From contig JAKUPT010000015.1 of NCBI GenBank assembly GCA_022450595.1, forward strand, positions 1 through 43,534: a DNA stretch of 43,534 nucleotides, written 5' to 3'. The notes beneath the pieces are model-generated. The model worked only from the letters and a program-made list of their open reading frames with translations. It made no database searches and had not been told where the DNA came from. This stretch comes from Bdellovibrionales bacterium. GTDB taxonomy: Bacteria > Bdellovibrionota > Bdellovibrionia > Bdellovibrionales > UBA1609. The translations under genes and the position numbers were made by a program. Below, piece after piece: positions 7,796 to 42,913 of the stretch; the stretch's first letter is position 1, and the number at the start of each line of letters is the position of its first letter.

Positions 7796-7843
7796 AAGGG
7801 GGATATGATTGTATTGAGCAACAGCTGTGCCAGCATATAGAGG

Positions 7844-8063: not shown

Positions 8064-8085
8064 CTGTAAAGAACGGAGAATTGTT

Positions 8086-9114: not shown

Positions 9115-9126
9115 TAGGAGGCCGCT

Positions 9127-9729: not shown

Positions 9730-11411
9730 CGGTGATAAATTCCTAAACCCTGTGGCTTAGCTCTTGATCCCTCAGCACTGAAGTCTTTTGCCACAGTCTT
9801 GATTTGCTCTAAGCTATAGCTTTGCTCTAGCATTGGCTTCTCAGGTGTTGAAGCCAGATGCAATGTTTGTGTGGGAAACGCAAACTCAATGCCTAAGTCT
9901 TTTGCCAATCTTACTACCTCTAACAATAAGTTTTGTCTTTGAATCAATTCGTCACTCCAAGTCGGAGTTTCAACAAAGCAGTAAAACAATATATTTAAAC
10001 TGCTGGGGCCAAAGTCATTAAAGACAATATGAAAGTTTTCTTTATTAGTATAAGGGTTGGCTAAAATAATATTTTTTATTCCCTCAAGGAAGGCTTCCAT
10101 TTTTTCAGGTGGCGTATCATATGTCACCCCTATTGTGGTTTTCACTCTGCGATACTGACGCTCACCCATGTTATCAATATTGATGGTTGCAAGTAGAGAG
10201 TTTGGAACTGTCATTAATGAGTTATAAAATGTTCGAATGCGAGTGGAACGAAATCCCACCTCAACAACAGTGCCGTCTACATTATTGTCGGCAACAATCC
10301 AGTCACCCACTTTAAATGGGCGGTCTATGATAATCATTATTGAACCAAAAAAATTAGCCGCAGTGTCTTTGGCCGCTAAGGCAAAAGCCAAACCCCCAAG
10401 CCCTAGACCTGCAAGTAAGGACATCACATTAAAGCCCATGTTTTGTATTACAAGCAAAACTCCAAAAACCGCCACAAAAACTTTTAAAGATTTTGCAACC
10501 ATAGGCACTAACTGGTCATCTAATGTGGTGTCTGTTTTTTTGGTGAGAAGTTCTAGTTTTTCAATAACAATATCTATAAGTTTATAAGCCGCCCAAACTA
10601 AACTTAAAGTAAATGTGGCTTTAATGGCGGCCATGAGTGTGGCATGGGGCCAGCCACTGATATCAATAAACTGCACACCTAGGTACCAAAAAGCACTGGC
10701 AACAAGCAGTCCAGAGGGCCCCTCTACTGAGACCAGAATTTTTTGCTTTTGTGAGCCGGACTTAAATACATGTTTAACAAGTTCTAAAATAAATTCTGTT
10801 ATCTTTTTTAAAATAAAACCAATGAGTAATAAAATGAATATCGCAATCCACTGCCACTTGGCCATCCCAAATAGATCTTCAGTCATCCAGTCAGGAAAGT
10901 GCTTTTTCCAAAATGGATCTTTATACATAGCTCCCTGACCACTGTCTTCTAAATAGGGGAGATGTTGAACTTTTTTATAAAACTCATGGGCACGCTCTAC
11001 CGTGTTAGCAGAAATTAAATAATCCCCCACACGGTCGCCTTCTTGAACCTGTCTGATGGTGATTTCTGTATCTTTGAGACGCCACTTTTTCACATCTGTT
11101 TCAGCAGGTATTTTTGAGTAATCAATCAGAATCACTCGATCGATGACTTCTTTTAAAAAGATCGCGGCCTTTTTGGCGTCTTGAGATCGACTTTCTTTGG
11201 GAATTTCTGATAAATCCATACAGCGAATCGCGTCCTCAATTCTGGACTGTAACTGCTTATCATTTTGTTTTATTCCTTTTTTGTAATCGTTCATAGCTGT
11301 TATAAACGATTTCATAGTGTCACGAGGATGATCCAGTTTAAGGGGAGCTAAAAGCGAAGCATTGGCAGATATAAAAAATAAGAAAATAAGATTAAATATA
11401 AGTAGTTTCAT
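9726..11411 (-). CDS. MscS-family mechanosensitive ion channel
   Basis: GLGLGGLAFALAAKDTAANFFGSIMIIIDRPFKVGDWI...VGFRSTRIRTFYNSLMTVPNSLL; N-terminal signal peptide and TM helices. Confidence 0.95.
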   Translation of the reverse strand: MKLLIFNLIFLFFISANASLLAPLKLDHPRDTMKSFITAMNDYKKGIKQNDKQLQSRIEDAIRCMDLSEIPKESRSQDAKKAAIFLKEVIDRVILIDYSKIPAETDVKKWRLKDTEITIRQVQEGDRVGDYLISANTVERAHEFYKKVQHLPYLEDSGQGAMYKDPFWKKHFPDWMTEDLFGMAKWQWIAIFILLLIGFILKKITEFILELVKHVFKSGSQKQKILVSVEGPSGLLVASAFWYLGVQFIDISGWPHATLMAAIKATFTLSLVWAAYKLIDIVIEKLELLTKKTDTTLDDQLVPMVAKSLKVFVAVFGVLLVIQNMGFNVMSLLAGLGLGGLAFALAAKDTAANFFGSIMIIIDRPFKVGDWIVADNNVDGTVVEVGFRSTRIRTFYNSLMTVPNSLLATINIDNMGERQYRRVKTTIGVTYDTPPEKMEAFLEGIKNIILANPYTNKENFHIVFNDFGPSSLNILFYCFVETPTWSDELIQRQNLLLEVVRLAKDLGIEFAFPTQTLHLASTPEKPMLEQSYSLEQIKTVAKDFSAEGSRAKPQGLGIYHR

Positions 11412-17588: not shown

Positions 17589-18055
17589 ATTCGTTTAAAA
17601 TTAGTAGCTTCTATATTGATAATTATTTATTTGGACTTAATGTTGGTCATATTCAAGAAATAATAAAGAGTCCAAAAATTACTCCAATCCCATCCTCAAG
17701 TGATTATATATGTGGACTTATTAATTTAAGAGGGCAAATACTTTCATGCATTGATCTGCGTTCGATGATGGCACTTGATAATTATAGTGAGTCAAAAAGT
17801 ATGAGTGTAATTGTCGATTCTGAAGATGTATTAATAAGTGTACTGGTAGATGATGTCTCTGAAATATTAGAAATCAATGATTATGACTATGAACAAACTC
17901 CAGATAACATTTCGAATAACATATCCAGATTTTTGCATGGTGTTTATCAGTTAAATTCTGGAATATTATTAGAGCTAGATATTAACAAAATTTTAAAATT
18001 TATTGAAAATTATGAAATTAAAAATTCTTTTAATAATAATATGAGGGGGGCATGA
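17585..18055 (+). CDS. cheW: chemotaxis coupling protein CheW
   Basis: [54 protein letters not shown]; overlaps cheA stop (ATGA). Confidence 0.94.
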
Positions 18056-19674
18056 TGAGTCAGGCTTTAGAACTAACAAAAAATTTAGGCATTGATGAGG
18101 AATCATTGAATAAAAGAAAAGAATTTATAAAGCTATCAAAGTCCGAAATGGATCTTTTAAAGGAGTTAATACCATGGGCTAAGGAAACGGCTCCAAAAAT
18201 TGCAAAGGAGTTCTACGACTGGCAGTTTAACTACTCAGGAACATTAGAGTTTTTTCAAAACTATTCAGAAAAAAAAGGGATGAGCTTACAGGCATTACGT
18301 GATCATCTTGAAAAAGCTCAAACAAATTACTTAATCACAGTATTTACAGGGGCAGAGGAAGAGTACGGTTTGTCGTATTTTGAATATAGACTTAAAGTAG
18401 GTAAAATTCATGATCAAATTAATCTTCCATTTAAGTTTTATATTGGAGCTTATATAGAGTTTCAAGCTTTGGTTCGAAAATATTTACAGAAAAAAATTAA
18501 AAGAGCCTCTGTTGCCTCAAAATATATCATCGCTATTGATAAAGTGTTTAACTATGACATTCAAGCCGTTGGGGACTCATTCTTAATGAGCACCATGGAA
18601 TCTATTGGCTTTAGTTTAGAGGGTATTCAGTCTGGTTTTGGCAAAGATAAAACAGAATCATTATCTGATATAAAAGATTCTGTTGATGTTTTAATTAAAC
18701 AGGCACAAGCCATTGCTGACGGTAATTTATCAGACCCAATTTTAACTAAAAGAATTCAAGGAGTGTTAGGTGAGTCCTTTGGTCGAGTGTCAGATAACTT
18801 AAATCAAATACTCACTGAAATAACACAATGCTCTAATTCTATTGCTTCATCTTCATTTGATTTAAATGAATTAAGCAAAAATATGACATCTCATGCAGAG
18901 GAGTTATCGTCACGAGCAAATAATGCCTCTACGGCTTCTGAAGAAGTGAGTCAAAGTACTCAAACTGTTGCTTCAGCCAGTGAAGAGATGTCAGCAAGTG
19001 TTCGTGAAATAGCATTAAATGTAAGCAAAGCCACAAAAATTTCAAATGAAGCCAGTATTGTAGCAAAAGATACAAACGCAGTAATCTCTGGATTAGAAAC
19101 TAGTAGTTCAGATATTGGTCGTATCATTAAAGTAATTACAGATATTGCGGACCAAACTAACTTGTTAGCACTTAATGCAACCATTGAAGCGGCACGAGCC
19201 GGTGAAGCAGGTAAAGGTTTTGCTGTTGTGGCAAACGAAGTTAAAGATCTTGCCAAACAAACAGCCGCAGCAACTGAAGAGATCAGTTCAAAAATCACAA
19301 CCATTCAATCTGACAGCAAAGAGGTTATTACAGCTATTGGAAAAATAAGTGAGATTATTGCCAATATTAATGATACTCAAACTTCTGTAGCTAGTGCTAT
19401 TGAAGAGCAGACAGCTACGACGAATGAAATTACAAGAAGTATTACTGAGGCTGCTAGAGGGAGTGAAGAAATATCGCAGAATATTCATGGAGTGGCTCAA
19501 GCTGCTAGTTCTACAAAAGATGGAGCAGACAAAACTGAGTTGTCTGCAGTTCAGCTAAGTGAACTGGCTGAGGCATTAAATAAAGCTATTTCTCATTTTA
19601 AAATTTTAACGAGTGATCAGGATAATATTAAAGTTTTAAATACAGATAGGCCTCAATTAAGAGTTTCGGTATAA
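18052..19674 (+). CDS. hemAT: globin-coupled methyl-accepting chemotaxis protein (HemAT-type aerotaxis transducer), soluble
   Basis: N-terminal protoglobin with [23 protein letters not shown] (proximal-His region), C-terminal MCP tip [48 protein letters not shown]; no TM segments. Confidence 0.92.
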
Positions 19675-19678
19675 TGTT

Positions 19679-20734
19679 ATGGAAAAGTCTGGTATTCATG
19701 CATTGGTTGTTGATGATAGTGCCTTATTTCGAAAACAAATTGAAAGACTTTTTTATTCTGATGCGGCCTTTGAAAAAGTCTCTTTGTTTTCAGATGGTAA
19801 TAAAGCCCTTAATTTTATTAAAGACTCAAAACCAGATGTTGTAATTCTAGATATTGAGATGCCTATAATGAACGGCTTAGAACTGTTAAAACACATTAGA
19901 GATCTTGATAAGCCTTTGCCCATTATTATGTTTAGCTCGCTTACACAAAAAGGAGCGGCAGTTACACTAGAGGCTTTAGCTTATGGTGCCACAGATTTTG
20001 TAGGGAAACCCTCTACGATAGATGGCTTTTCAAATACTCCTGAGCAAGTCTTTGAAGCATTGCTTTTTAAAACTAAAACACTGGCAAAAAGATCAAGTTA
20101 TATAAAAACCTCTTTAGATACTCATGTTAAAAAGTTAAAAAATTCTAGAGTCGATTTAATAGTTATAGGATGTTCAACGGGCGGCCCAAAAGCCCTTGAA
20201 ACACTTTTATCGCAAATTACAAATGATATAAGTGCTCCTATTTTGATTGTTCAACATATGCCACCACTATTTACAAAACTTTTAGCCGATCAACTTGATA
20301 GCAAAACGAATCTCAATGTTAAAGAAGGTGCAGATAATCAATTTGCCGAACCAGGAGCTGTATATATAGCACCTGGTGGCTATCATATGGTTATTGATCG
20401 AAACTATAAAATCTACCTTAATCAGGAGCCAATGGAGAATTCTTGTCGTCCAGCTGTAGATGTTTTATTTAGGTCAGCTGCAGCAGCTTTTGGTCAAAAC
20501 TGTTTAGGTGTTTTGTTGACCGGCATGGGATCTGATGGCCTTAAGGGGTGTCATAAGATTAAAGACTGTAGTGGCTCTGTATTTGTACAAGATCAAGAGT
20601 CTTCAGTTATTGGTAGCATGCCGGGCGCTGTACAGTCAGCAGGCCTTGCAGATGCTGTTTACTCCTTAAACGATATTGGATTGCAAATCTATAACTATAC
20701 TCTTAAAAATAGCGTTGAAAAAAAATGTATTTAG
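19679..20734 (+). CDS. cheB: protein-glutamate methylesterase CheB
   Basis: REC domain (VVDDSALFRKQ...VVILDIEMPIMNGLELL) and methylesterase (VIGCSTGGPKALETLL, VQHMPPLFTKLLADQL). Confidence 0.96.
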   Translation: MEKSGIHALVVDDSALFRKQIERLFYSDAAFEKVSLFSDGNKALNFIKDSKPDVVILDIEMPIMNGLELLKHIRDLDKPLPIIMFSSLTQKGAAVTLEALAYGATDFVGKPSTIDGFSNTPEQVFEALLFKTKTLAKRSSYIKTSLDTHVKKLKNSRVDLIVIGCSTGGPKALETLLSQITNDISAPILIVQHMPPLFTKLLADQLDSKTNLNVKEGADNQFAEPGAVYIAPGGYHMVIDRNYKIYLNQEPMENSCRPAVDVLFRSAAAAFGQNCLGVLLTGMGSDGLKGCHKIKDCSGSVFVQDQESSVIGSMPGAVQSAGLADAVYSLNDIGLQIYNYTLKNSVEKKCI

Positions 20735-20744
20735 TTGAGGGACT

Positions 20745-21563
20745 ATGAATAATTTAGAATTTATGTATATACAATCACTGTTGTTAGAAAAACTCGGTAT
20801 TTCTCTTGAAGACAGCAAAGAATATCTGGTGCAGTCACGGCTAAACCCCATAGCGCAAGCGCACGGAATGAATAATTATCATGATTTGGTGAAATATTTA
20901 AGAATTAACAAAGACAACACATTGATTAAAAGTGTTTTGGAAGCCATGCTTACTCACGAAACTTATTTTTTTAGAGATGTTAAATTTTATGACTCTTTAA
21001 AAGACCATGTTATTCCAGAAATTATTAAAAATAATAGACACACTAAAGAATTAAAAATCCTGTCCTGCGCCTGTTCTACCGGACAAGAGCCCTATAGTTT
21101 GGCTATAATGCTAACTGAAAACTTTCCGGAGTTAGCTTCTTGGAATATATCCATTAAAGCTTTTGATTACTCAGCAAATGCCATTGAAAAGGCTAAGTCA
21201 GCTTGCTATACCTCTTATGAAGTAAATAGGGGGTTGTCAGAGGCTTTAATATCTAAATATTTTACCAATAATGGAAAGCATTGGACACTACGTTCTGATA
21301 TACGCAACTTAGTGTATTATTTTAGAGCAAATCTTTTAGAAAACCTACCTGATGTTTCTGCCGCTGATTTATTACTTCTTAGAAATGTGCTTATTTATTT
21401 TGATCTTGATAATAAGAAAAATATTTTAAAAAGCATACAGACATATATAAAGCCATCGGGATATCTATTCTTAGGCAGTGGAGAGACCACTTTAGGTCTA
21501 ACTAATGAGTTAACAAAGGTTAGAATAAATAATTGCGAAGGGTATCAGCTTTTATTGAGTTGA
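20745..21563 (+). CDS. cheR: chemotaxis protein methyltransferase CheR
   Basis: THETYFFRDVKFYDSLKDHVIPEI...LSCACSTGQEPYSLAIML...LLLRNVLIYFD. Confidence 0.96.
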   Translation: MNNLEFMYIQSLLLEKLGISLEDSKEYLVQSRLNPIAQAHGMNNYHDLVKYLRINKDNTLIKSVLEAMLTHETYFFRDVKFYDSLKDHVIPEIIKNNRHTKELKILSCACSTGQEPYSLAIMLTENFPELASWNISIKAFDYSANAIEKAKSACYTSYEVNRGLSEALISKYFTNNGKHWTLRSDIRNLVYYFRANLLENLPDVSAADLLLLRNVLIYFDLDNKKNILKSIQTYIKPSGYLFLGSGETTLGLTNELTKVRINNCEGYQLLLS

Positions 21564-21754: not shown

Positions 21755-22393
21755 TTGAGTACAAGCTGTGTGGAAAGTTTAGATTTTGAGCGTATACTAG
21801 TTTGTGAGGATCATCCTTTTGTACAGTTTGGTATAAAATCTTTAATGGATAAAATTGTACCCCATTGCAAATTGATTTTTAGTCAAACAGGTCGCGAAGC
21901 TATTAGTCATCTAAAGCAACATCGGGCGGAGTTAGCTCTTGTGGATTTAGGCCTGCCAGATATGACTGGAGTAGAATTAATTAGCAAGCTTAAGTCTTTA
22001 AATAATAGTATTAAAATATTAGTATTAACTAGTTGTGAAAACCCTACAGTTTTAAAACAAGTGGTTAACTTGGGTGTTTCTGGAGTTATGCAAAAAGCTT
22101 CTTCTGCTGAGGAGTTAGAGTGCGCTTTTTTACATATAAAAAATAAAAAGAAAAATATCTATTTAGACTCTTATGTGAAAACTATTTTAAGTGTTACTGA
22201 TGGTATTAGCTTCACACCAAAAGAAGTTGAAGTTCTGCAAAAAATAGTTAAGGGTCTTTCAAATCAAGAAATTGCAGACAAGCTTAAGTGTAGCATTTAT
22301 AGCGTTCGATTTCATCGTGCAAATATACTAAGTAAAACCAATATGCGAAGTGCGGCTGAATTAACTGCTTGGTATTTAAAAGGGCAAGCGTAG
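21755..22393 (+). CDS. NarL/FixJ-family response regulator
   Basis: REC: LVCEDHPFVQFGIKSLM...LALVDLGLPDMTGVELI; LuxR HTH: FTPKEVEVLQKIVKGLSNQEIADKLKCSIYSVRFHRANILSKTNM. Confidence 0.93.
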   Translation: MSTSCVESLDFERILVCEDHPFVQFGIKSLMDKIVPHCKLIFSQTGREAISHLKQHRAELALVDLGLPDMTGVELISKLKSLNNSIKILVLTSCENPTVLKQVVNLGVSGVMQKASSAEELECAFLHIKNKKKNIYLDSYVKTILSVTDGISFTPKEVEVLQKIVKGLSNQEIADKLKCSIYSVRFHRANILSKTNMRSAAELTAWYLKGQA

Positions 22394-24091
22394 TGTTGCA
22401 GTTGTTCCTTTCTGTTTTAATGATTCAAACTTAAGTGTGCCATTATGAAGTGCAACAAATTTTTTTACAAAAGTAAGTCCCAAACCAAAGCCTTCAGACT
22501 TAATGTTTATAGCGCTAAAGTTATTGTCAGTAGAATTATTTATAACCTCTAGTTTTTTTAAGTCTATACCTGAGCCTTGATCAATAACTTTAATTATAAT
22601 CTCCTTGTCATTTTTATCTAAGAATATAGTAATTTTTTGGCCAGGAGAAGAGGCTCTAATACAATTAGTCATGAGGTTTCTAAGAATGGACTCAATCATA
22701 AATCCGTCTGCTTGGTATATTAAGGTCGGTTGTTTAGACTCTAACTTTACATCAATACCTTTTTCAGCCCAAATAAAATCAATGCCTTCAATCGTTTCTT
22801 TTATTAGACAATTCATTTCAAGCGATGTTCGAACTGGTTGAAAAGTATTTTTTTGCAGACGTGTCCAAAGTAATATATTTGTCATAAGTTCTTTTGATGA
22901 AAATGTAGATGATACTAATGATCTTGCAAGGGTTCTTAATTCTGGCCCCACTTCTTTTTCTAAATTAGAAGAGATAGCTGTTTGTGTTTGTATAACATTT
23001 GAGAAATCATGAGTAATCATAGTTAGTAAATTGGACTTGAACTCAATATGATTATTTAATTTTTTTTCAATTTGTTTTTGTAATGTAAGTTCATGAAAGC
23101 TTAATATTTTTCCATGAGGGAGTCCTCGTGAGTTTAGGCGGTCAATATTCACTTCAAAATGACGCTCACCTCGATTTTTTTTGGAGAAGTTCCAATTTGC
23201 TAACATTTTATTAATATCAATATTTTTAAATATTTTGATAGTGTGAATGTTTTGATGAATGTGTTTTGAACTTAAATTAAAGGTATGCAATGCAGCCTTA
23301 TTAAAGTCTTTAAGCTGATTGTTTTCATCTAAAATTAGAATTGGATCTGGGTGCAATCTAAATATCTGATCTTTTGCGATTGTTGGAATATCCAAGAGAC
23401 CATGTTTTATAATTGCATAAAGTATTGCAGATTCAATTAATAAAAATGTTCCACCAGAAAGCATTGCCCATCTCAGAGGGCTGTCTGTGACAACACAGTA
23501 AATATCAATAAATAAACCAACAAATCCACTTATAGATAAAATAATTAGTTGCCTAAGCTTATTGCCTTTAAGTTTTGTGAGCATATATAGTGAATATATA
23601 ACTCCAGATATTCCGAATAAATAAGCCCATAAAATGTGAGCCATAAACCATGGCCCTCCATTGAAAGATACAACCTTAGCTCCTTGCCAAAGAAATAGCT
23701 TGTAGTTAGTAGTTAGTAGGTCGCCCAGGCCTGGAACAATAGAAAATATGACGGTTACCAGTGAGGGAGCAAAACTTATAGCAATGACCCATGGTTTACA
23801 TAAAATATGCCGGCCACTAAAGGCTACTGTTAAAAAGTAAAACCAAGCTTGAGCTATGATGGCATGACCTACATAACGTAATCTTGAAAAGGCCTCTTTG
23901 CTTTCTAATGACTCTTGGATGTAAACATTTAGCCCAAAAAAAGAAATCACACAGACTGAAGTAACAAATAAAACAAGCCATCGTCCCTCTGGCCTTTTTT
24001 GTTGAATACTGGCCACTTTTATAAGCAACAAGACACCAACAATAAAAACACAGATTTTTAAAAATAAAATTAATATTGGAACACTAAGCAT
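22376..24091 (-). CDS. sensor histidine kinase with 7TM N-terminal region, PAS-like and HATPase domains
   Basis: Seven hydrophobic segments, LDENNQLKDFNKAAL PAS-like, DHp LTMITHDFSNVIQTQ, HATPase MTNCIRASSPGQ...VIDQGSGIDLKK...GFGLGLTFVKKFVALHNG. Confidence 0.9.
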   Translation of the reverse strand: MLSVPILILFLKICVFIVGVLLLIKVASIQQKRPEGRWLVLFVTSVCVISFFGLNVYIQESLESKEAFSRLRYVGHAIIAQAWFYFLTVAFSGRHILCKPWVIAISFAPSLVTVIFSIVPGLGDLLTTNYKLFLWQGAKVVSFNGGPWFMAHILWAYLFGISGVIYSLYMLTKLKGNKLRQLIILSISGFVGLFIDIYCVVTDSPLRWAMLSGGTFLLIESAILYAIIKHGLLDIPTIAKDQIFRLHPDPILILDENNQLKDFNKAALHTFNLSSKHIHQNIHTIKIFKNIDINKMLANWNFSKKNRGERHFEVNIDRLNSRGLPHGKILSFHELTLQKQIEKKLNNHIEFKSNLLTMITHDFSNVIQTQTAISSNLEKEVGPELRTLARSLVSSTFSSKELMTNILLWTRLQKNTFQPVRTSLEMNCLIKETIEGIDFIWAEKGIDVKLESKQPTLIYQADGFMIESILRNLMTNCIRASSPGQKITIFLDKNDKEIIIKVIDQGSGIDLKKLEVINNSTDNNFSAINIKSEGFGLGLTFVKKFVALHNGTLKFESLKQKGTTATLRLPF

Positions 24092-24853: not shown

Positions 24854-26602
24854 ATGAAAATATATATATTTATAGTAACGCTAACAATCTTATTACTTAC
24901 AGCAGCTTGTGGGCCAGGAATGAGCAAGCTAACCAAGCCAAGTCTGGTAGGTCAGACCTATACACTGACTTTTGACTCAAATACGGGTACGGGAGCTATA
25001 CCTGAATCACGAACTCTTAAGGTAGGGGAAAAAACAACACTTCCCATTGCAAGTACATTAAGTAAAACTGGGGCCGGATTAACACATTGGAGTGAATCCA
25101 GTGATGGTTCAGACACTAATCTTACTGTGGGCTCAAGCTTTACTATGCCGGCGCGTAATGTCACTTTATATGCCAAGTGGACGGATGATGTGTATGTGGT
25201 GAGTTTTGATGGTGGCAATAAGACTTCCGGCACTCTGCCAGATATTATGTTAGTAAACGACGGAGACACAGCAACCATCCCTGGTGTTGGAAGCTTAGAA
25301 AAAGTTGTTGATAACGAAAGCCTTAGTTTTGTTGGCTGGAATACCTCTGATGACAAATCTGGAACTTTTTATTCTGCTAGTGATACAATTACAATTTCAG
25401 GAGCATCTGTTCATTTATATGCATCATGGAAAGATATAACTTTTGTAAGTCCCCTAGGTGATGACTCTACAGGTAAAGGCACTAAGTCCAAACCTTATAA
25501 AAGCATTGAAAAAGCAATAACTGAGTCTCTAGATTATAGTGAAATTCGAATTGCCAACGGAACCTACAACACAACATCAACTTTAAACTTAAAAAATGCA
25601 ATGGACATCAAAGGAAGTTATGATTCTAACACTTGGGTGCAAAACTTAGATGGATTTCAAACTGAAATATTATCCAGTCAATCTGTTGGGATTTTATGTG
25701 ATACTAAAATAAAGCCTTTTGTTGTTGAGGGACTTAAGCTTGTCGTTGATCCAAGTAGTAGCGTAAATGGTATAGAGCTAGAAGAGTGTCCTAATGCTAC
25801 TATTAGAAATAATTATATAAAAGTAATTTATACCAGTAATGGAACTACGCGTGGAATTGTAATTAATGCTACTTTAAATACTAGCAATGCCACTATAGAA
25901 TCAAATATTGTTTATAGTGAAGCGGGAAGGTATACTTACGGAATCTTTATAAGCTATTTAAGAGATGGAAGTACACTTGAAATAAATAATAACGTAATTC
26001 ATGCAGTAAAAATAAACTCAATGAATGGCGCACCAACTTCTATATATATTAATGCAGGTAGTGGTACAAAAACCCTTAATGTAAGAAATAATACAATGGT
26101 ATTTGGTCGTCATAACCCTGATACATCAAGTGCTTTAGGTGAATCTGACGGAAGCAACGCTAGTACATTAAATGTATATTTTGATAACAATATTGTTTTT
26201 GGTGCAACTGCTGTAGATGGTACATATCCAACAGCGGGAATTTATCAGGGAAACAACTCAACTTGGAATTTAGTCTCACTTAAAAATAACAATTTTTTTC
26301 AACTAAACTCAATGCTAGTGTCTTTGAAAAACTCTCAAGACTATACAACTATAGTTGATTTAGAAAATGGCGTTGGCGCTGCCGCTACCGACAATATCTC
26401 GGTTGACATGATTGCTGGAGGCTATTTTCAAGATCCAAATAATATGGATTATAGCCTTTCTGCAACAGCTCCAACTAGTATTTCTGAAGGTGGCTTAAAA
26501 GGAGATGATTTAGGTTGGGGTTTTAGTAAGGATATACTTGGCCAGACACGCACAGGTAGCCTTGGCACAGGATGGTCTATGGGCGCACACGAAAAAGACT
26601 AG
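24854..26602 (+). CDS. lipoprotein with InlB B-type (Listeria-Bacteroides) repeats and right-handed beta-helix/DUF1565-like domain
   Basis: Lipobox LLTAAC; two repeats ending YAKWTDD and YASWKD with FDSNTGTG/FDGGNKTSG; then FVSPLGDDSTGKGTKSKPYKSIEKAI...RIANGTYNTT. Confidence 0.85.
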   Translation: MKIYIFIVTLTILLLTAACGPGMSKLTKPSLVGQTYTLTFDSNTGTGAIPESRTLKVGEKTTLPIASTLSKTGAGLTHWSESSDGSDTNLTVGSSFTMPARNVTLYAKWTDDVYVVSFDGGNKTSGTLPDIMLVNDGDTATIPGVGSLEKVVDNESLSFVGWNTSDDKSGTFYSASDTITISGASVHLYASWKDITFVSPLGDDSTGKGTKSKPYKSIEKAITESLDYSEIRIANGTYNTTSTLNLKNAMDIKGSYDSNTWVQNLDGFQTEILSSQSVGILCDTKIKPFVVEGLKLVVDPSSSVNGIELEECPNATIRNNYIKVIYTSNGTTRGIVINATLNTSNATIESNIVYSEAGRYTYGIFISYLRDGSTLEINNNVIHAVKINSMNGAPTSIYINAGSGTKTLNVRNNTMVFGRHNPDTSSALGESDGSNASTLNVYFDNNIVFGATAVDGTYPTAGIYQGNNSTWNLVSLKNNNFFQLNSMLVSLKNSQDYTTIVDLENGVGAAATDNISVDMIAGGYFQDPNNMDYSLSATAPTSISEGGLKGDDLGWGFSKDILGQTRTGSLGTGWSMGAHEKD

Positions 26603-29336: not shown

Positions 29337-29562
29337 ATCCCCACCTTTTGTTGTTTGCCTAAAATTTAAATACAAAGCTGTTAGCAAGTCAAACTGATGT
29401 AATATGCAAATTTAAACTTATTAAGGGATAAATTGACTCGAGTAGTTCTAAAGAGTTTTTTTACTCAAGATGAGTGATAGTAGAGCTGGGTATTTATGTT
29501 TTATTTGCTAATCGTATTGCTTTTAAATAAAATATTTTTATCTATCTCTTAAAAGTGCATGA

Positions 29563-29745
29563 GTATCTTGTTTTGCAATTTTCACCATAGCTATAAATAC
29601 AGATGCAACAGGTTTTGCCACTCCCGATAGATGGATGCCTGGAGAGGCTTGCATTGTTCCTCCACCTAAAACAACTGAGGCGGCTGAGGAAAGAATGAAC
29701 TCTGAGTACGAGGTATCAGATTGGTACTTTTCAAAAACAAAATAA
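29563..29745 (+). pseudogene. open frame without credible start, probable gene remnant
   Basis: VSCFAIFTIAINTDATGFATPDRWMPGEACIVPPPKTTEAAEERMNSEYEVSDWYFSKTK*; an ATG in another frame immediately upstream (29559) would fuse only by a frameshift. Confidence 0.3.
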
Positions 29746-29762
29746 CTCAAACATTTAAATCT

Positions 29763-29796
29763 AAAAAAGCTCTGAAGTGGTTCAGAGCTTTTTTTT
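29763..29796. terminator. bidirectional intrinsic terminator (likely serves the minus-strand 29881 gene)
   Basis: AAAAAAGCTCTGAA-GTGG-TTCAGAGCTTTTTTTT: perfect stem, U-runs on both strands. Confidence 0.85.
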
Positions 29797-29809
29797 GTGT
29801 AGGGTGGAA

Positions 29810-29848
29810 GCGTTAAAGTCGTAGATTCGAGTCTCACGGCATCCACCA
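29810..29848 (+). repeat. tRNA 3'-end-like fragment (TTCGAGT loop, acceptor half, CCA), possible attachment-site scar
   Basis: GTAGA-TTCGAGT-CTCAC-GGCATCC-A-CCA has exact 5+7+5+7+1+3 spacing of a tRNA 3' end but T-stem is imperfect and no tRNA body precedes it. Confidence 0.4.
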
Positions 29849-29880
29849 AAGGATAAATAATAAGTAGAAATAACTAGTAT

Positions 29881-31545
29881 TTACGAAACATCCCTACACA
29901 TTTTTTTAGGATTTATTTTTAGTTCGTTAAGTGCTTTTTCAATAACTAGTAAAACATAGTCCAGATCAACTTTAGAGTGAATCGCAGATACTGTGAAACG
30001 GAATCGAGATGAATTTTTACTCACGGCAGGGTACACAACAGGTATTGTATAAACACCTGCATCGAATAGTATTTTATACATCTTTCCAAGAAGCTCGTCG
30101 TCTCCAATAATTACTGGAACAATTGCTGAGTCATGATTTTTGTCGATCTCAAAGCCAAGTTCTCGCAATCCGTCTACAAAAAAACTAATATTTTCACGTA
30201 AATGACTTCTTCTTTCTGGTTCTTTTTGAAAAATCTCAAGAGATTTTAAAGTCGCCATAACTGTGGATGGGGGGAGTCCTACACTGAAAAATACGGAACG
30301 TGCAGATATGTTTATCCAATCGATAACCTCTTTTGATCCACACATAAAGCCACCAATTGTGCCACAAATTTTAGAGAATGTTCCCATAGTTAAATCAATG
30401 TTTCCGTGAAGATCATATTTTTCGGCGGATCCAAGTCCATTTGTGCCAAGTACACCAAATGAGTGTGCGTCATCAAGCATTAAGCGACAATTGTATTTCT
30501 TTGCAAGTTTGTAAATCTCGTTAAGAGGCGCACTGTCACCGTCCATTGAAAAGACTCCTTCTGCTATAATCATAGCTCCATCAGCTTTTTCTCGATATCT
30601 CTCAAGTATAGTCTCCAGATGTTCCATGTCGTTGTGTTTGAAAAGTCGAGATGTGGCTTTTGATTGAAGCATCCCATCTGCAATGGAGGCGTGCGATAAA
30701 ATGTCAGCTATCAAAAGGTCATTGACTCCCGCCAAACAACTAATAGTGCCTAGGTTAGCAGCATAGCCAGAGTTGAAAAGTGTCGCACTTTCTGTATTAA
30801 AAACTTCGGATAGTTTGTGTTCTAGTTTTTGATGTTCTTCAGTCTGGCCGGTAGTTACAGGGGAACCGGTTGCTCCGAAGCCGTACAGGTCCAAGCCTTT
30901 TTTTGCAGCCTCTACGACTTCTGGATGGCTTGATAACCCTAAGTAGTCATTAGAGGCCATTACGATGAAGTCATCTCTTCGATTTGCCCTTTTTTTTGTT
31001 AAATTTATTTTTGTGCCAGAGCTTGGCTTTCTTATAAGCCAATATCCCCATCGGTCGTTTTCTTTTAGTGATTGAAAATAGTATTGAAAGTCATAGGCCT
31101 TTTTAAAAATATCATTAGATTCACTATTTTTTTCAAGAAAATCACCTAAGGTTGAGCCCATAGAATCAATTTCAAGTTCACTACTAGTTGTAGGTTTTGA
31201 AAAATCCAAATCAATATAGTGAGAAAATGTGGTGTCGACTGGGGCCATAATATCTACGAACATAATACCAAATAAAGTTAATTCTTCTTTCGTGTGAATA
31301 AACTTAATAACACTTCGTCCAAATTCCCATTCGTTATCTTCAAAGCTTAGTTTCCCAAGAGGAAGGAGATCTCCAATTTTTAGTGAGTCGGTGTCTTCTG
31401 TGTTTTTAACTTCAAACGAGCAACCAGTTTTTGAAATATCTTTTAGTGATCCTTTTAAATCGAAACAAGTACTTGTTTGTAAATGAATTGAGATAAGTTT
31501 ATCAGCTTTTATATTATATCGTCGTCTTCTTGGTTTTCGACTCAT
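29881..31545 (-). CDS. PilZ domain fused to PLP-dependent alpha-oxoamine synthase (AONS/KBL/serine palmitoyltransferase family)
   Basis: N-term RKPRR (RxxxR) and LKDISKTGCSF ([D/N]xSxxG); C-term MASNDYLGLSSHPEV, GSPVTTGQTEEHQKLE, MLDDAHSFGVLGTNGLG, MGTFSKICGTIGGFMCG (PLP-Lys). Confidence 0.92.
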   Translation of the reverse strand: MSRKPRRRRYNIKADKLISIHLQTSTCFDLKGSLKDISKTGCSFEVKNTEDTDSLKIGDLLPLGKLSFEDNEWEFGRSVIKFIHTKEELTLFGIMFVDIMAPVDTTFSHYIDLDFSKPTTSSELEIDSMGSTLGDFLEKNSESNDIFKKAYDFQYYFQSLKENDRWGYWLIRKPSSGTKINLTKKRANRRDDFIVMASNDYLGLSSHPEVVEAAKKGLDLYGFGATGSPVTTGQTEEHQKLEHKLSEVFNTESATLFNSGYAANLGTISCLAGVNDLLIADILSHASIADGMLQSKATSRLFKHNDMEHLETILERYREKADGAMIIAEGVFSMDGDSAPLNEIYKLAKKYNCRLMLDDAHSFGVLGTNGLGSAEKYDLHGNIDLTMGTFSKICGTIGGFMCGSKEVIDWINISARSVFFSVGLPPSTVMATLKSLEIFQKEPERRSHLRENISFFVDGLRELGFEIDKNHDSAIVPVIIGDDELLGKMYKILFDAGVYTIPVVYPAVSKNSSRFRFTVSAIHSKVDLDYVLLVIEKALNELKINPKKMCRDVS

Positions 31546-36887: not shown

Positions 36888-37040
36888 GTCGGTTTATTGT
36901 AATGGCAAGATGAATATGCGAGTATTAAAAAGTAGCAAAATGAAGCTATGCAAAATATCTGCGATTCTATGAAAAATTATGTATTTCGTAGTGATGTCTG
37001 TTTAAACTTTGACATGCAACATTGATTGAGGAGGCCTAGA

Positions 37041-38030
37041 GTGAGTGTAGACGTAATGGCATTAAATGAGGCTATAAAGCAAGACAGTCAATTTATTGAT
37101 AGAGCCCTTAATGAGGCCTCAAAAGTCGTTGTAGGGCAAAGAGAGATGCTTGAAGGCATTTTGATGGGCCTACTCACTGGCGGCCACGTACTGCTTGAGG
37201 GGGTTCCGGGGCTTGCTAAAACCCTAACAATATCTTCAATTTCTCAAGCCATTTCCCTAGATTTTCAAAGAATTCAGTTCACGCCTGATCTACTTCCGAC
37301 AGATTTGATAGGAACTATGATTTTTAACCCGAAATCTGGGGAGTTTACTCCTAAAAAGGGTCCGGTGTTCACCAATATTGCTCTTGCCGATGAAATTAAC
37401 CGTGCGCCCGCTAAAGTTCAAAGTGCCTTGCTTGAAGCTATGGCTGAAAAACAAGTCACAATAGGTGAGCAAACCTACAAGTTAGACAAACCTTTTTTAG
37501 TGTTAGCCACACAAAACCCACTAGAGCAAGAAGGGACCTATCCACTTCCTGAAGCTCAAATGGACCGTTTTATGTTTAAAATTATTGTTAAACATCCATC
37601 ACGTGAAGAAGAGATGGAGATTTTAAATAAAATGTCTCTAAACAGCATGCCTGAGATTCAACCAGTGATTAGTAAAGAAGAGTTGATCCGTGCTGGTGAG
37701 CGAGTGGATTCCATTTATGTGGATGAAAAGATTAAAAACTATATTGTGGACATTATTATGGCGACCAGAAAGCCTGAAGAGTACAATGTTCACAGTGTAG
37801 ACGGAATGATTCAAGTGGGCTGCTCTCCAAGGGCCACAATAAGTTTAATTAGAGCTTCTAAAGCCCATGCGTTTTTAAGAGGCCGCGGCTATGTGACCAC
37901 TGAAGATATTAGAGCGGTGGCTTATCATGTTTTATGTCACAGATTAATTTTAACTTATGAAGCTGAAGCTGAAGAGATCAGCAAAGAAAAAGTTGTAACC
38001 GATATTTTAAATGCAGTTGAGGTGCCATAA
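37041..38030 (+). CDS. MoxR-family AAA+ ATPase
   Basis: VVGQREMLEGILMGLLTGGHVLLEGVPGLAKTLTI...ADEINRAPAKVQSALLEAMAEKQVTIG; GTG start at 37041 with AGGAGG 6 nt upstream. Confidence 0.96.
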   Translation: MSVDVMALNEAIKQDSQFIDRALNEASKVVVGQREMLEGILMGLLTGGHVLLEGVPGLAKTLTISSISQAISLDFQRIQFTPDLLPTDLIGTMIFNPKSGEFTPKKGPVFTNIALADEINRAPAKVQSALLEAMAEKQVTIGEQTYKLDKPFLVLATQNPLEQEGTYPLPEAQMDRFMFKIIVKHPSREEEMEILNKMSLNSMPEIQPVISKEELIRAGERVDSIYVDEKIKNYIVDIIMATRKPEEYNVHSVDGMIQVGCSPRATISLIRASKAHAFLRGRGYVTTEDIRAVAYHVLCHRLILTYEAEAEEISKEKVVTDILNAVEVP

Positions 38031-38906
38031 TTGAGTATTCCTCCAGAGGTTTTAAAAAAAGTTAAGCTGCTTGAGCTTAGCACAAAAAAACTCGTCAATG
38101 AGGTGTTTTCAGGAGAGTACAATTCTGCACTAAAAGGTCAAGGGATGACCTTTTCTGAATTTAGAGAGTATGTTCCTGGAGATGATGTGCGAGACATTTC
38201 CTGGCCCTTAACCGCCAGAACCGGTAAGCCTTACATTAAAAAGTACGATGAAGAGCGTGAAATGATGGTGATGCTGGTGGTGGATGTCAGCGGTTCCAAT
38301 GACTTTGGCTCTAAGCAGTACTTAAAAGGTGAGGTGATCAATCACCTTGCGGCTATTTTAGGGTATGCGGCTAAAAAAAATAACGACCCAGTGGGGCTAT
38401 TGCTATTTTCTGATCAGGTGGAGCTTTATTTGCCGCCGAAAAAAGGACAGGGTCAGGTTCATAGAATCATTCAAGAGCTTTATTACTTTAAACCTCGCTC
38501 TAAAAAAACCAATCTAGCTCCGGCCATTGATCACTTGTTGAAGGTGTTAAAAAAACGTGCTCACTTATTTATTTTTAGTGATTTTATTATGCCCAACTTT
38601 TCTGCGGGATTAAAACTATTGGGTGCAAAGCATGATGCTATTGCGATCCACATTCAAGACCCCTCAGAGCAAGAGCTTCCAAGTTGTGGATTACTTGATG
38701 TGGTGGACGCCGAAACCGGTGAAACTGTGACTGTAAATACCTCCAGTCAGTACTTTAAAGATACTCAAAAGCAAAAAATGCAGGAAAAGTTTGAAACTGT
38801 AAAACAAAACTTAAGACTTTCACAAATTGATATTATCCCAGTTAAAGTCGGCAGCGACATTGTAGCTCCATTGATTACTTTCTTTAAAAGAAGGAGTCGA
38901 CGTTGA
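38031..38906 (+). CDS. DUF58 domain protein
   Basis: GMTFSEFREYVPGDDVRDISWPLTARTGKPYIKKYDEEREMMVMLVVDVSGSNDFGS. Confidence 0.93.
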   Translation: MSIPPEVLKKVKLLELSTKKLVNEVFSGEYNSALKGQGMTFSEFREYVPGDDVRDISWPLTARTGKPYIKKYDEEREMMVMLVVDVSGSNDFGSKQYLKGEVINHLAAILGYAAKKNNDPVGLLLFSDQVELYLPPKKGQGQVHRIIQELYYFKPRSKKTNLAPAIDHLLKVLKKRAHLFIFSDFIMPNFSAGLKLLGAKHDAIAIHIQDPSEQELPSCGLLDVVDAETGETVTVNTSSQYFKDTQKQKMQEKFETVKQNLRLSQIDIIPVKVGSDIVAPLITFFKRRSRR

Positions 38907-39862
38907 GCCAAAAAAAATCCTCTGATGTACAAATTAAAAAAGTAGAAGGCACAGTTTTCCCAATTTGGACCTGTGAGACTGAAGAGTTAAGTAAAAGTTT
39001 AAACGAACTCAATGTGGCTGACCCTTTTACTTTAAATTGCATCGGAGACTTTGTTGAGCCCTTGGGGAAAAACTTAAAAGTTAAGGTTTTAGAGAAAAGC
39101 CATCCCTACAGTTTGAAAATTTTAAAGGTGATTCAAAGTGAGAGTGAGCAAATACAATTAAAGGCCACCTCTTATGTGCCCGGTGAGCACAACGTGAAGT
39201 TTCAAATTTTAAATTCTGAACAAAATGGGGTTCAGGTTAATGAGCTCACTTTAAAAGTAAATTCTGTGATCGATCCCGAAAAAGGCATGCCTACATCCTA
39301 TGGGGTGATTGGTCCCTTGCAGCTGACTTGGCCCACATGGTTGGTTTTTGCCTTTATAGCCGTACTGGCAACTTTTTTAATTTCAGGTTTGCTGGCTAGC
39401 ATTAGGTCTTATCAAAAAAGCAAAACCTTAAAAGAGATTATGGTGGTTGATGATCAAGATTTAAAAAGTTTAAAAAAATATGAACGCTATAAAGTGGCAT
39501 TAAAGATTTTTATCAAAAATATCAGAGAGTATCGTCGTGAGTATTTAAAACCTGAGGCTTTAAAAACCAAAGACTATAGTGTTGAGAGTTACACCAAAGA
39601 CTTAAGAGATGAATTTGTGCTTTATGTGAGTCGACTGTTTGCTGTCCCATTTAGTGGATCTCGTCCCAAACAAATTTTAAATTTTCTAAAAAAGAAACAT
39701 CCATTTTTTTATGACAATTTTCAAAAAGACTTTAACTACATACTTAATGAACTAGAAGGTATTGATCAAGACAATGCCGACAAAGAGTCTTTACAAAGAC
39801 TTTTTGATAACTTACAGCTTTCTGCTGAAAAAATCTCTGCCCACTTAAGGAGGTTGTCATGA
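38903..39862 (+). CDS. membrane protein of the MoxR/Bat operon (unassigned)
   Basis: Single TM (WPTWLVFAFIAVLATFLISGLLASI), 4-bp overlaps with both neighbours. Confidence 0.7.
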   Translation: MSQKKSSDVQIKKVEGTVFPIWTCETEELSKSLNELNVADPFTLNCIGDFVEPLGKNLKVKVLEKSHPYSLKILKVIQSESEQIQLKATSYVPGEHNVKFQILNSEQNGVQVNELTLKVNSVIDPEKGMPTSYGVIGPLQLTWPTWLVFAFIAVLATFLISGLLASIRSYQKSKTLKEIMVVDDQDLKSLKKYERYKVALKIFIKNIREYRREYLKPEALKTKDYSVESYTKDLRDEFVLYVSRLFAVPFSGSRPKQILNFLKKKHPFFYDNFQKDFNYILNELEGIDQDNADKESLQRLFDNLQLSAEKISAHLRRLS

Positions 39863-40860
39863 TAGAGTGGCACAGCCCTTGGGTGTGGAGTCTTTTTATT
39901 CCACTGGCTTTAATAGTTGCTTTTGGCTTTAAAAAGCATAAAAAAGCGGGCTTTAAATTTAGTGACGTGTCTTTGTTTAAAGACATGGCCTTTTCTTTTG
40001 CAGTGTTTTTTAGTCGTTTGCCAAAATACTTTTTTATTTTAAGTGCAGGTTTAGCAATTTTAGCATTGAGCCGCCCAAGGCAGGCCGACACTCAGGTACA
40101 AAAAAATGTGGAAGGTATTGATATCGTCATTGCTCTTGATATTTCTGACAGTATGTTGATTGAAGACATGAAGCCTGAAAACCGTTTAGAGGCCTCGAAA
40201 AAAACTATTAAAGAGTTTATTGAGAAAAGAATTTCTGACCGTATTGGACTGGTTGTATTTTCAGGTGAATCTTACACACGGGTTCCGATGACTTTAGATT
40301 ACCCTCTATTATTAAATAACTTAGCGAAAGTGGAAACCTCGAGCGGAATCAAAATGGGGACGGCCATTGGGGTTGCCCTGGCTAATGCTGTGGCCCGGCT
40401 TAAGGACTCCACCGCAAAAAGCCGTGTGGTGATCTTTTTAACAGATGGGGAGAACAACACCGGAACTATTGATCCAATGACGGCTATTGATATTGCCCAA
40501 GGCTATGATGTAAAGGTTTATTCCATCGGCATGGGACGTGACGGACAGGCAAGGCTTCCTGTTTATATTGAAACCCCAACCGGACAAAAAATTAAGCAGT
40601 ACAGGCCCATCCATTCAAAAATTAATGAGGGTCTATTAACAAAGATGGCCACGGAAACGGGTGGTAAGTTTTACCGAGCTAACACCTCTAATGCCCTTGA
40701 TGAGGTGTTTAGTGAAATTAACCAACTTGAAACAACAAAAATTGAGGTTAACCAATTCACGACCTATGAAGAGCTTTTTCAAAAGTTTTTAATCTTTGCC
40801 CTTGGTTTATATCTGTTAGGATTTTTTATTAAATATATTGCAGCAAGGAGAATGCCCTAG
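39859..40860 (+). CDS. batA: BatA-like von Willebrand factor type A protein
   Basis: GIDIVIALDISDSMLIEDMKPENRLEASKKTIKEFIEKRISDRIGLVVFSGESYTRVPMTLDY (MIDAS DxSxS). Confidence 0.9.
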   Translation: MIEWHSPWVWSLFIPLALIVAFGFKKHKKAGFKFSDVSLFKDMAFSFAVFFSRLPKYFFILSAGLAILALSRPRQADTQVQKNVEGIDIVIALDISDSMLIEDMKPENRLEASKKTIKEFIEKRISDRIGLVVFSGESYTRVPMTLDYPLLLNNLAKVETSSGIKMGTAIGVALANAVARLKDSTAKSRVVIFLTDGENNTGTIDPMTAIDIAQGYDVKVYSIGMGRDGQARLPVYIETPTGQKIKQYRPIHSKINEGLLTKMATETGGKFYRANTSNALDEVFSEINQLETTKIEVNQFTTYEELFQKFLIFALGLYLLGFFIKYIAARRMP

Positions 40861-41918
40861 TGTTTCGCTTTGCCAACCCTGAATATTTAAACTTACTTTA
40901 CCTGCTCTTAGCACTAGTTGTGCTGGCTATTATTGTAGACCGCAAAAAAGTAAAAAAAATGATGTCTACGTTTGGTAAAACTAATTATTTGTTTCTTGCT
41001 CAAAACATTTCAAAAATCAAAAGGCGTATTAAATTCATTTTAAAAATTGGCGCATTGTTGTTTTTTATCATTGCCTTGGCTAGGCCACAAACCAGTGGTG
41101 ATGAGGTAGATGTAAAAAGCCAAGGTGTAGAGATGATGTTTGCCGTAGACATTTCAAACAGCATGTTGGCCGAAGACATTAAACCTTCAAGACTTGAAAT
41201 GACTAAAAAAGAAATCGAGCGCATGATAGACCAGCTCGGAGGCGACAAAGTAGGTATTGTGGCCTTTGCAGGCTCAGCTGTTCTACTTTCTCCTTTAACC
41301 ACCGACAAAGCGGCCTTAAAGATGTACTTAGACTCTTTAACTCCAGATGCTATTGGCACCCAAGGGACCAACTTTAATCGTGCTATTGAAGTCTCTACAG
41401 AAGCCTTACTTCGAGGTGGCCTTACCAATAGTGAAGGCGCTGCGGTTACAAAAGTCATCGTGGTGTTTTCAGATGGTGAGAACAATGAAGGCAGTTATGA
41501 GTCCGCTGTTGAAAAGGCCTCAGATCAAGGAATTAAGGTGTTTGGAATGGCCGTGGGTACGGAAAAAGGAGCTCCCATTCCTATAAGGGATCAGTATGGG
41601 CAGCTTAAAGGCTATTTAAAAGATCAAAGCAATAAAGTTGTGATGTCTAAAACCTCTGGTGAGACTTTAAGAAAAATTGCACAAAAAGGCTCCGGGGAGT
41701 TTTACTACCTGACTTATGGTGGGGCGACTGTAAAAGAATTAATACAAGACGTTGCAAAGCTTGAGCAGCAAACTTTTGAAGAGGCCAGGGTGGCAAATTT
41801 TAATGAACAGTTTATTTGGCCACTGAGTTTAGCCCTTATCTTTTTACTCTTAGACTTGCTTATTTCTGAAACCAAAATGCTTGGCAGATGGAAGGGCCGC
41901 TTTGAGGTGAACCGATGA
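40860..41918 (+). CDS. batB: BatB-like von Willebrand factor type A protein
   Basis: GVEMMFAVDISNSMLAEDIKPSRLEMTKKEIERMIDQLGGDKVGIVAFAGSAVLLSPLTTD. Confidence 0.9.
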   Translation: MFRFANPEYLNLLYLLLALVVLAIIVDRKKVKKMMSTFGKTNYLFLAQNISKIKRRIKFILKIGALLFFIIALARPQTSGDEVDVKSQGVEMMFAVDISNSMLAEDIKPSRLEMTKKEIERMIDQLGGDKVGIVAFAGSAVLLSPLTTDKAALKMYLDSLTPDAIGTQGTNFNRAIEVSTEALLRGGLTNSEGAAVTKVIVVFSDGENNEGSYESAVEKASDQGIKVFGMAVGTEKGAPIPIRDQYGQLKGYLKDQSNKVVMSKTSGETLRKIAQKGSGEFYYLTYGGATVKELIQDVAKLEQQTFEEARVANFNEQFIWPLSLALIFLLLDLLISETKMLGRWKGRFEVNR

Positions 41919-42913
41919 AGCTTTTATTTGTACTTGTTTTATTATTTAGTCTTAATAGTTATGCTCAGAGTTTAAAAGATCTGCAGGCTGTGTATTGTAA
42001 TAAAATTTCATCCTTAGAGTTAATCAAGCTTGCAAAGATTAAAAACGTTTATTCTCAATTAAAGCAGGTTTCTGAGCGTTTCAAGCCAGTGTTGGATAAA
42101 ATGCCAGAACAACAAAAAAAACAAGTTCTTGATCAGCTTAAAGAGCAAGACGCTGCCAACAACTTAAACTTGCTTTGTAAAGCACTAGATGCTGAGTGTG
42201 ACTTTGACAATATAGACAGTCTTGATGGTTTTATCAGTGAGGTAGAAAGAATTCAGTCCATGGCAGAAGCTTTTGTGAAATCCTCAGCCTCTCAGGCCAT
42301 TAATCAAACAGTGAAGTGTTTATCCACTGATCAAAACAATATCACGTTGAATTTTAACTTTGCACTGGCCTTATCTTTTGCCGATGACAATAAAAAATCT
42401 ATTGAAACTTATAATGGTTTATTGAAAAGACTAGAGGCGTCTGAGTCATCTTTGAGCAAAACCGAATTTAATCGAATGAAGTTTTATATTTTATTTAATT
42501 TAGGAGTACTTCATTCCCAAGAGTCGCAAATTGATCAGGCACTTAATAGGTACCAACAAGCCTTAGAGTTACAGCCTGAGTCTAAAGAGATAAAAACAAA
42601 CATTGAACTGCTTTTTCAACAACAGCAGCAACAGCAAGGTCAAAAAAGTCAGCAGGGCAATCAAGGTGACAACCCTGACCAAAATAAAGACCAGCAAGAA
42701 GAAAAAGAACAACAAAATGAAAAAAATCCTGACAACAAACAAAATCAGGACAAGCAAAATCAAGAGCAACAAGACTTCAAAAGCAAAAACCTATCAAAAG
42801 ATGATGTTCGTAAAATTTTAGAAGAGCTTAAAAATCAGGAAAATAAAATCCGTATGAATGAATATCAAAAAGGTGATAAAAGCCAGGAGAATGAAAATGG
42901 TAAAAACTGGTAA
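41915..42913 (+). CDS. batC: BatC-like TPR protein with Gln/Asn/Lys-rich tail
   Basis: TPR-like NLGVLHSQESQIDQALNRYQQALELQPESKEIKTNIELL followed by QQQQQQQGQKSQQGNQGDN... low complexity; operon position. Confidence 0.82.
   Translation: MKLLFVLVLLFSLNSYAQSLKDLQAVYCNKISSLELIKLAKIKNVYSQLKQVSERFKPVLDKMPEQQKKQVLDQLKEQDAANNLNLLCKALDAECDFDNIDSLDGFISEVERIQSMAEAFVKSSASQAINQTVKCLSTDQNNITLNFNFALALSFADDNKKSIETYNGLLKRLEASESSLSKTEFNRMKFYILFNLGVLHSQESQIDQALNRYQQALELQPESKEIKTNIELLFQQQQQQQGQKSQQGNQGDNPDQNKDQQEEKEQQNEKNPDNKQNQDKQNQEQQDFKSKNLSKDDVRKILEELKNQENKIRMNEYQKGDKSQENENGKNW

What the first reader, a model, noticed from the sequence alone, without database searches (positions are those of the whole stretch)
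29881..31545. PilZ domain fused to an alpha-oxoamine synthase: possible c-di-GMP-controlled lipid or amino-ketone biosynthesis
One continuous 554-aa ORF has an N-terminal PilZ with both c-di-GMP motifs (RKPRR; DISKTG) and a full-length AONS/KBL/SPT-type catalytic domain with PLP-lysine motif GTFSKICGTIGGF and DDAHSFGVLG. I know of no well-described PilZ-oxoamine synthase enzyme. Knowledge: SPT family members start sphingolipid synthesis, and sphingolipids are reported in Bdellovibrio-and-like organisms. It stands alone with no bioF/bio or kbl-tdh neighbours, so a biotin role is less likely. Inference: c-di-GMP gates a serine-palmitoyltransferase-like or related condensation, linking envelope lipids to life-cycle state.
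Basis: partly seen in the sequence, partly recalled or inferred. Interest (0 to 1): 0.72.

Follow-up and report, generated by a model that had tools for sequence, protein, structure and literature searches.

The report
PilZ-regulated enzyme of a signalling operon
[quoted passage not shown] in this genome the partner genes are missing.

Summary
The 554-aa ORF is real (window 31545..29881, minus strand). A PilZ N-terminus is fused to a catalytically intact alpha-oxoamine synthase (AONS). Pfam scores the PilZ below its cut-off, but an AlphaFold model (pLDDT 89.6) matches c-di-GMP-bound PilZ structures.

The fusion is a family: 15 genes in 14 of 144 genomes of the class, one clade (100/100), outside BioF, KBL, ALAS and CqsA/LqsA and beside, not within, the sampled SPTs. 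In every genome but this one it lies beside an uncharacterised multi-TM histidine kinase, usually translationally coupled and followed by a receiver-cyclase-homology response regulator. Kinase and regulator are almost confined to these genomes (Fisher 1e-14, 4e-14). True CqsA/LqsA genes show the same layout. A separate SPT-like gene beside a GNAT acyltransferase exists in six genomes; one has both.

Best reading: synthase of an autoinducer-type signal, analogous to CqsA/LqsA but independently arisen, with nucleotide control through PilZ. The sphingolipid role is not supported. The window genome carries an orphan synthase. Product, receptor binding and c-di-GMP binding are untested.

The parts
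29881..31545 (-). PilZ-AONS fusion gene, 554 aa
31210..31524 (-). PilZ domain, about residues 8-112
   Evidence: Pfam PilZ 16.5 bits, below cut-off; AF2 pLDDT 89.6; Foldseek to c-di-GMP-bound PilZ structures; profile comparison with PilZ domains of the same genome E 1.3e-4, probability 54%
31519..31530 (-). R6-x-x-R9, invariant arginines, one residue shorter than canonical RxxxR
31423..31440 (-). DISKTG, residues 36-41, second PilZ motif ([DNE]xSxxG in the family)
30970..31209 (-). linker and AONS N-terminal arm, residues 113-192, partly low confidence in the model
29911..30969 (-). alpha-oxoamine synthase catalytic domain, residues 193-545
30445..30474 (-). DDAHSFGVLG, residues 358-367 (PLP-contact D358 and H361)
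30370..30372 (-). K392, PLP Schiff-base lysine in GTFSKICGTIGGF
29388..29880 (.). downstream gap where the kinase gene lies in relatives; no kinase or regulator remnant found

Best explanation
It is the synthase of a small-molecule signalling module that works like CqsA/CqsS or LqsA/LqsS/LqsR but arose independently. The AONS domain condenses an amino acid with an acyl thioester to an alpha-aminoketone. In relatives the product (or a derivative) is sensed by the co-encoded multi-TM histidine kinase, which passes phosphate to the receiver-cyclase-homology regulator. The PilZ domain couples synthesis to a cyclic dinucleotide, probably c-di-GMP. In the window organism the synthase persists as an orphan: it may make a signal read by another kinase, or have been retained for a changed role. 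SHOWN: fusion, PilZ fold, intact active site, single clade, operon and co-occurrence in relatives, absence of partners here. INFERRED: product class, receptor binding, nucleotide binding, direction of control.
For: All 13 other PilZ-AONS genomes have a related kinase next to the gene (in G133 divergent, about 1.1 kb away), with AONS-kinase gaps of -4 to +17 nt in the rest (73 in one) and the regulator usually overlapping the kinase by 4 nt. Full-length kinase in 12 of 14 PilZ-AONS genomes against 1 of 130 others, the exception being a contig that starts inside the kinase; regulator 11 of 14 against 0 of 130 (Fisher 1e-14 and 4e-14). Kinase sensor: N-terminal hydrophobic segment, about 115 aa between, then about 5-7 TM segments by hydropathy. 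Regulator C-terminus resembles class III cyclases (hhalign 96%, 5e-9; top weak PDB hits are adenylyl cyclases). Curated CqsA/LqsA genes from Pseudomonadota show the synthase + kinase (+ regulator) layout in 7 of 8 loci read, as stated in PMC3376566. Catalytic residues invariant.
Against: The catalytic domain is not in the CqsA/LqsA clade (100/100 apart) and scores 217 bits against that model's cut-off of 428. The kinase sensor carries a probable extracytoplasmic region, unlike the six-TM CqsS sensor described in PMC3376566, and has no Pfam sensor match. Operon linkage does not prove that the kinase binds the product; it could regulate a lipid enzyme. Kinase and regulator are missing in the window genome itself. 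RxxR spacing makes c-di-GMP binding uncertain.
Confidence: 0.5

Rival explanations
1. The enzyme makes a bulk lipid base (3-ketosphinganine-like, deoxy- or sulfonolipid-like), and the kinase and regulator only control the pathway; PilZ ties envelope composition to life-cycle state.
For: In the tree the clade lies on the SPT/ThAOS side; its nearest sampled relatives include an ACP-linked Bdellovibrionales AONS in a cluster with epimerase-like, UbiA-like and lipid-kinase-like genes, named from sequence reading only. Best PDB matches are SPTs.
Against: No lipid-pathway neighbours recognised at any PilZ-AONS locus read. A separate SPT-like gene with a GNAT partner exists in six genomes, one of which has both. 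All SPT models far below cut-off; SRFLNG motif absent.
Confidence: 0.22
2. The PilZ domain no longer binds c-di-GMP; it is a structural or protein-contact domain and the enzyme is regulated only transcriptionally (compatible with either product).
For: RxxR instead of RxxxR in 14 of 14; D36 varies as D/N/E; Pfam does not recognise the domain in the relatives scanned.
Against: R6, R9, S38 and G41 are invariant, and most of the best fold matches are c-di-GMP complexes.
Confidence: 0.35
3. It is an ordinary BioF or KBL that picked up a PilZ domain.
For: BioF is the best-scoring NCBIfam model (373 bits), and it is the only AONS detected in the window genome.
Against: Below both cut-offs (426 and 460); tree excludes it from the E. 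coli BioF and KBL clades; no bio or tdh neighbours; other genomes of the class carry separate BioF-like genes, and KBL beside a Tdh-like gene. Biotin genes elsewhere in the window genome were not searched.
Confidence: 0.05

Closest known systems
CqsA/CqsS and LqsA/LqsS/LqsR (alpha-hydroxyketone quorum sensing)
   Same: PLP alpha-oxoamine-synthase-fold synthase next to a membrane histidine kinase and, in some loci, a response regulator; LqsR too has a C-terminus without a recognised output domain (PMC3376566).
   Different: Catalytic domain in a different clade, far below the family cut-off; PilZ domain fused to the synthase; kinase sensor with a probable extracytoplasmic part; regulator carries a cyclase-homology domain.
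Bacterial serine palmitoyltransferase (SPT)
   Same: Same fold and PLP residues; nearest solved structures by sequence (3a2b, 8guh).
   Different: Outside the sampled SPT rows, no SRFLNG motif, below all SPT cut-offs, no GNAT or lipid-pathway partner.
PilZ c-di-GMP receptors (PP4397, YcgR, BcsA, MrkH)
   Same: PilZ barrel fold and DxSxxG-type motif.
   Different: RxxR[FY] instead of RxxxR; fused to an oxoamine synthase, a combination for which the paper library gave no report.
Thermus AONS/KBL-type synthase (8s1y, 7poa) and BioF/KBL
   Same: Catalytic fold, best raw NCBIfam score (BioF).
   Different: Separate branches in the tree; no pathway neighbours.

Membership tests
PilZ domain | PilZ beta-barrel fold | tested here: met
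   AF2 pLDDT 89.6; Foldseek top hits all PilZ proteins
PilZ domain | Pfam PF07238 gathering score | tested here: not met
   16.5 against 22.5 bits; no hit in four relatives
PilZ domain | RxxxR and [D/N]xSxxG c-di-GMP motifs in register | tested here: inconclusive
   DISKTG met; conserved arginines spaced RxxR
PilZ domain | c-di-GMP binding | not testable with these tools
   needs ITC or DRaCALA
alpha-oxoamine synthase superfamily | fold type I PLP domain with H285, D358, H361, K392, R516 equivalents | tested here: met
serine palmitoyltransferase | NCBIfam SPT equivalog cut-offs | tested here: not met
   329/640, 320/500, 259/670
serine palmitoyltransferase | placement inside the SPT clade | tested here: not met
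   separate 100/100 clade
CqsA/LqsA autoinducer synthase | NCBIfam NF005526 cut-off and clade | tested here: not met
   217/428; separate clade
[quoted passage not shown]
   met in relatives, not in the window itself
AONS-kinase-regulator signalling module (analogy to Cqs/Lqs) | same linkage in the window genome | tested here: not met
AONS-kinase-regulator signalling module (analogy to Cqs/Lqs) | product sensed by the kinase | not testable with these tools
   needs biochemistry
BioF | TIGR00858 cut-off and BioF clade | tested here: not met
   373/426; outside the E. coli BioF clade
KBL | glycine C-acetyltransferase cut-off, KBL clade, tdh neighbour | tested here: not met
   342/460; no tdh beside the window gene

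The most novel reading that the evidence does not exclude
An independently evolved autoinducer system in this (probably Bdellovibrio-like) class: the signal synthase carries its own cyclic-dinucleotide receptor, so an intracellular second messenger directly gates production of a cell-to-cell signal, which a cognate membrane kinase reads and turns into cyclase-type output; some members, like this genome, have lost the receiver and keep only the sender.
Probability: 0.35. Interest if true: 0.85.

Novelty: new variant of a known kind. Interest (0 to 1): 0.66.

Why it matters
AONS-based autoinducer circuits are described from Vibrio, Legionella and some other environmental bacteria (PMC3376566); no CqsA/LqsA above cut-off was found in 192 genomes of this phylum. 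A second, separate lineage of AONS coupled to a kinase and regulator would mean such signalling arose more than once. A PilZ domain on the synthase would be a direct route from c-di-GMP, which controls predation and free-living growth in Bdellovibrio (PMC3271064), to cell-to-cell signalling, and it can be tested with one purified protein.

Tried and rejected
BioF/KBL/ALAS identity (scores and tree). Strict SPT identity (cut-offs, motif, tree, separate SPT-like gene in relatives). Strict CqsA/LqsA membership (cut-off, tree). Looking for the missing kinase and regulator elsewhere in the window genome: only kinase-core and receiver-domain matches, at most 196 and 114 bits against 312-1015 and 485-724 bits for the operon copies. 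Remnants beside the window gene: none at E<1 that look real. Promoter and terminator scans: near chance. PilZ-AONS on plasmids: none of 609 matching records covers 80% of the query. The one genome-contig scan returned no relative matched into the PilZ part; since it relies on exact peptides, presence outside this class is not excluded. The full-length AF2 model (pLDDT 80.1, pTM 0.69) has low-confidence linkers, so no claim is made on how PilZ docks on the enzyme.

Full report
OBSERVATION. The ORF at 29881-31545 is on the minus strand and encodes 554 aa without interruption. Residues 193-545 are an alpha-oxoamine synthase: Pfam Aminotran_1_2 1.8e-48, closest solved relatives SPT 3a2b and 8guh (1.6e-75), then a Thermus AONS/KBL, KBL, BioF, ALAS and more distantly CqsA. 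NCBIfam scores it below the cut-off of every curated family: BioF 373/426, KBL 342/460, SPT 329/640, 320/500 and 259/670, ALAS 262/339, CqsA-type 217/428. The PLP-site residues H285, D358, H361, K392 and R516 are invariant among the relatives, so the enzyme should be active.

PILZ. Pfam alone would not have called the N-terminus (16.5 bits against 22.5; nothing in the four relatives scanned). AlphaFold2 on 14 aligned N-termini gave a confident barrel (pLDDT 89.6), and Foldseek placed PilZ structures first, most of them c-di-GMP complexes: PP4397 3kyf 1.2e-5, BcsA 4p00, YcgR 5y6g, MrkH 5kgo. A profile comparison with six PilZ domains of the same genome is weak but in register (E 1.3e-4, probability 54%). 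What is invariant is R6-x-x-R9 followed by F/Y, then [D/N/E]xSxxG with S38 and G41 invariant. Several other PilZ proteins of this genome have RxxxR, so this family is one residue short in that loop. c-di-GMP binding is plausible, not shown.

A FAMILY, NOT A ONE-OFF. The tree (69 rows, IQ-TREE) puts all 15 copies in one clade with 100/100 support. Curated CqsA/LqsA proteins, obtained from Pseudomonadota genomes, form another 100/100 clade; E. coli BioF, KBL and ALAS are elsewhere. The PilZ clade lies on the side of SPT and the Thermus enzyme, next to PilZ-less proteins from an Atribacteria MAG, a Bdellovibrionales MAG (ACP-linked) and a Brevinematales MAG; support for these neighbouring branches is moderate (90-92).

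THE OPERON. Reading the neighbourhoods of the relatives showed what the window could not. The PilZ-AONS gene is followed by a 600-680-aa histidine kinase (N-terminal hydrophobic segment, about 115 aa, about 5-7 TM segments by hydropathy, HATPase) and, in most, a 385-420-aa response regulator with a receiver domain and a C-terminus unknown to Pfam. Gaps are -4 to +17 nt (73 in one with an uncertain start) between synthase and kinase, and usually a 4-nt overlap between kinase and regulator. In G040 the regulator is convergent; in G134 it is a short 230-aa receiver protein; in G133 the related kinase lies divergently, about 1.1 kb away, on a short contig with no regulator seen. The C-terminus aligns with a class III cyclase of the window genome (hhalign 96%, 5e-9), and its weak PDB hits are led by adenylyl cyclases. 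Two aspartates at the likely metal positions are kept, but by inspection the substrate lysine and the transition-state asparagine are replaced, so activity is uncertain. Full-length kinase: 13 of 144 genomes, 12 of them PilZ-AONS genomes; the thirteenth is a 72%-complete genome whose contig starts inside the kinase. Regulator: 11 genomes, all PilZ-AONS genomes. Fisher 1e-14 and 4e-14; these p-values ignore shared ancestry, although the pattern spans five families.

THE WINDOW GENOME IS THE EXCEPTION. It is 97% complete, has the gene as its only detected AONS and has no full-length kinase or regulator of this kind. The gene is flanked by about 490 and 580 nt without convincing genes and then by unrelated genes on the same strand (a WD40 protein, a 278-aa protein without domains). 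The closest relative, G041 (60% identical), has the full operon, so loss of the partners here is more likely than late gain elsewhere.

WHAT IT PROBABLY DOES. Adjacency of an AONS-type synthase, a membrane kinase and a response regulator is the layout of the alpha-hydroxyketone systems (PMC3376566). As a control, eight curated CqsA/LqsA loci were read: seven have the kinase beside the synthase, three of them with a separate regulator recognised as well; the eighth, GC-rich, could not be read by this simple gene calling. I therefore favour a diffusible or membrane-borne aminoketone/hydroxyketone-type signal, made by an enzyme not derived from CqsA, with its synthesis coupled to a cyclic dinucleotide through PilZ. 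The synthase, fold, linkage and co-occurrence are shown; product, sensing and nucleotide effect are inferred.

WHY NOT SPHINGOLIPIDS. Six genomes of the class carry a different AONS that groups with SPTs (92-94 support) and lies beside a GNAT-family acyltransferase; G041 has that gene and the PilZ-AONS. SPT, a ceramide synthase and CerR are the known bacterial ceramide genes, and homologues outside the Spt-like clade are thought to have other activities (PMC11334938). That the GNAT is the ceramide synthase is my suggestion, not tested. Bacteriovorax stolpii is reported to have a conventional SPT (PMC6148460). The SRFLNG segment of the SPT rows is replaced by GSPVTTG or similar. A lipid role with the kinase and regulator as mere regulators is still possible (0.22).

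LIMITS. The library search found no paper on a PilZ-AONS fusion, but it holds open-licence papers only.

Noticed in passing
window 18052-19674 (+): Globin-coupled chemoreceptor (Protoglobin + MCPsignal) inside a CheA/CheW/MCP/CheB/CheR-like cluster at 15423-21563.
   Followed up: partly
window 21755-24091: HisKA_7TM-PAS histidine kinase (22376-24091, minus) convergent with a LuxR-type response regulator (21755-22393, plus), about 6 kb from the orphan synthase; a conceivable substitute receptor, no evidence beyond proximity.
   Followed up: partly
window 9145-9729 (+): Second PilZ protein in the window, over the Pfam cut-off and with canonical RxxxR; the genome has 14 PilZ domains over the cut-off.
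   Followed up: yes
L074, L127, L128, L129, L130, L131: Conserved pair of an SPT-like gene and a GNAT acyltransferase (split in two ORFs in L127), in several genomes near the amidase/RNase PH/RdgB-like block that the window has at 5612-7670 without the SPT pair.
   Followed up: partly
L013 (Bdellovibrionales RIFOXYD12), about 5 to 17 kb: AONS next to an 80-aa ACP-like protein in a cluster that looks like UbiA-type, epimerase-like, lipid-kinase-like, ThiL-like and MMPL-like genes: possible lipid or secondary-metabolite pathway (names from sequence reading, not searched).
   Followed up: no
L139 (Legionella lytica plasmid), 4986-9857: AONS gene directly followed by phosphosulfolactate synthase and phosphatase genes, suggesting a cysteate/sulfonolipid-type pathway on a plasmid.
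   Followed up: no
window 24854-26602 (+): Lipoprotein-like protein with a Listeria-Bacteroides repeat domain and DUF1565.
   Followed up: no
window 37026-42913 (+): MoxR ATPase followed by VWA-domain genes, a BatA/BatB-like operon.
   Followed up: no
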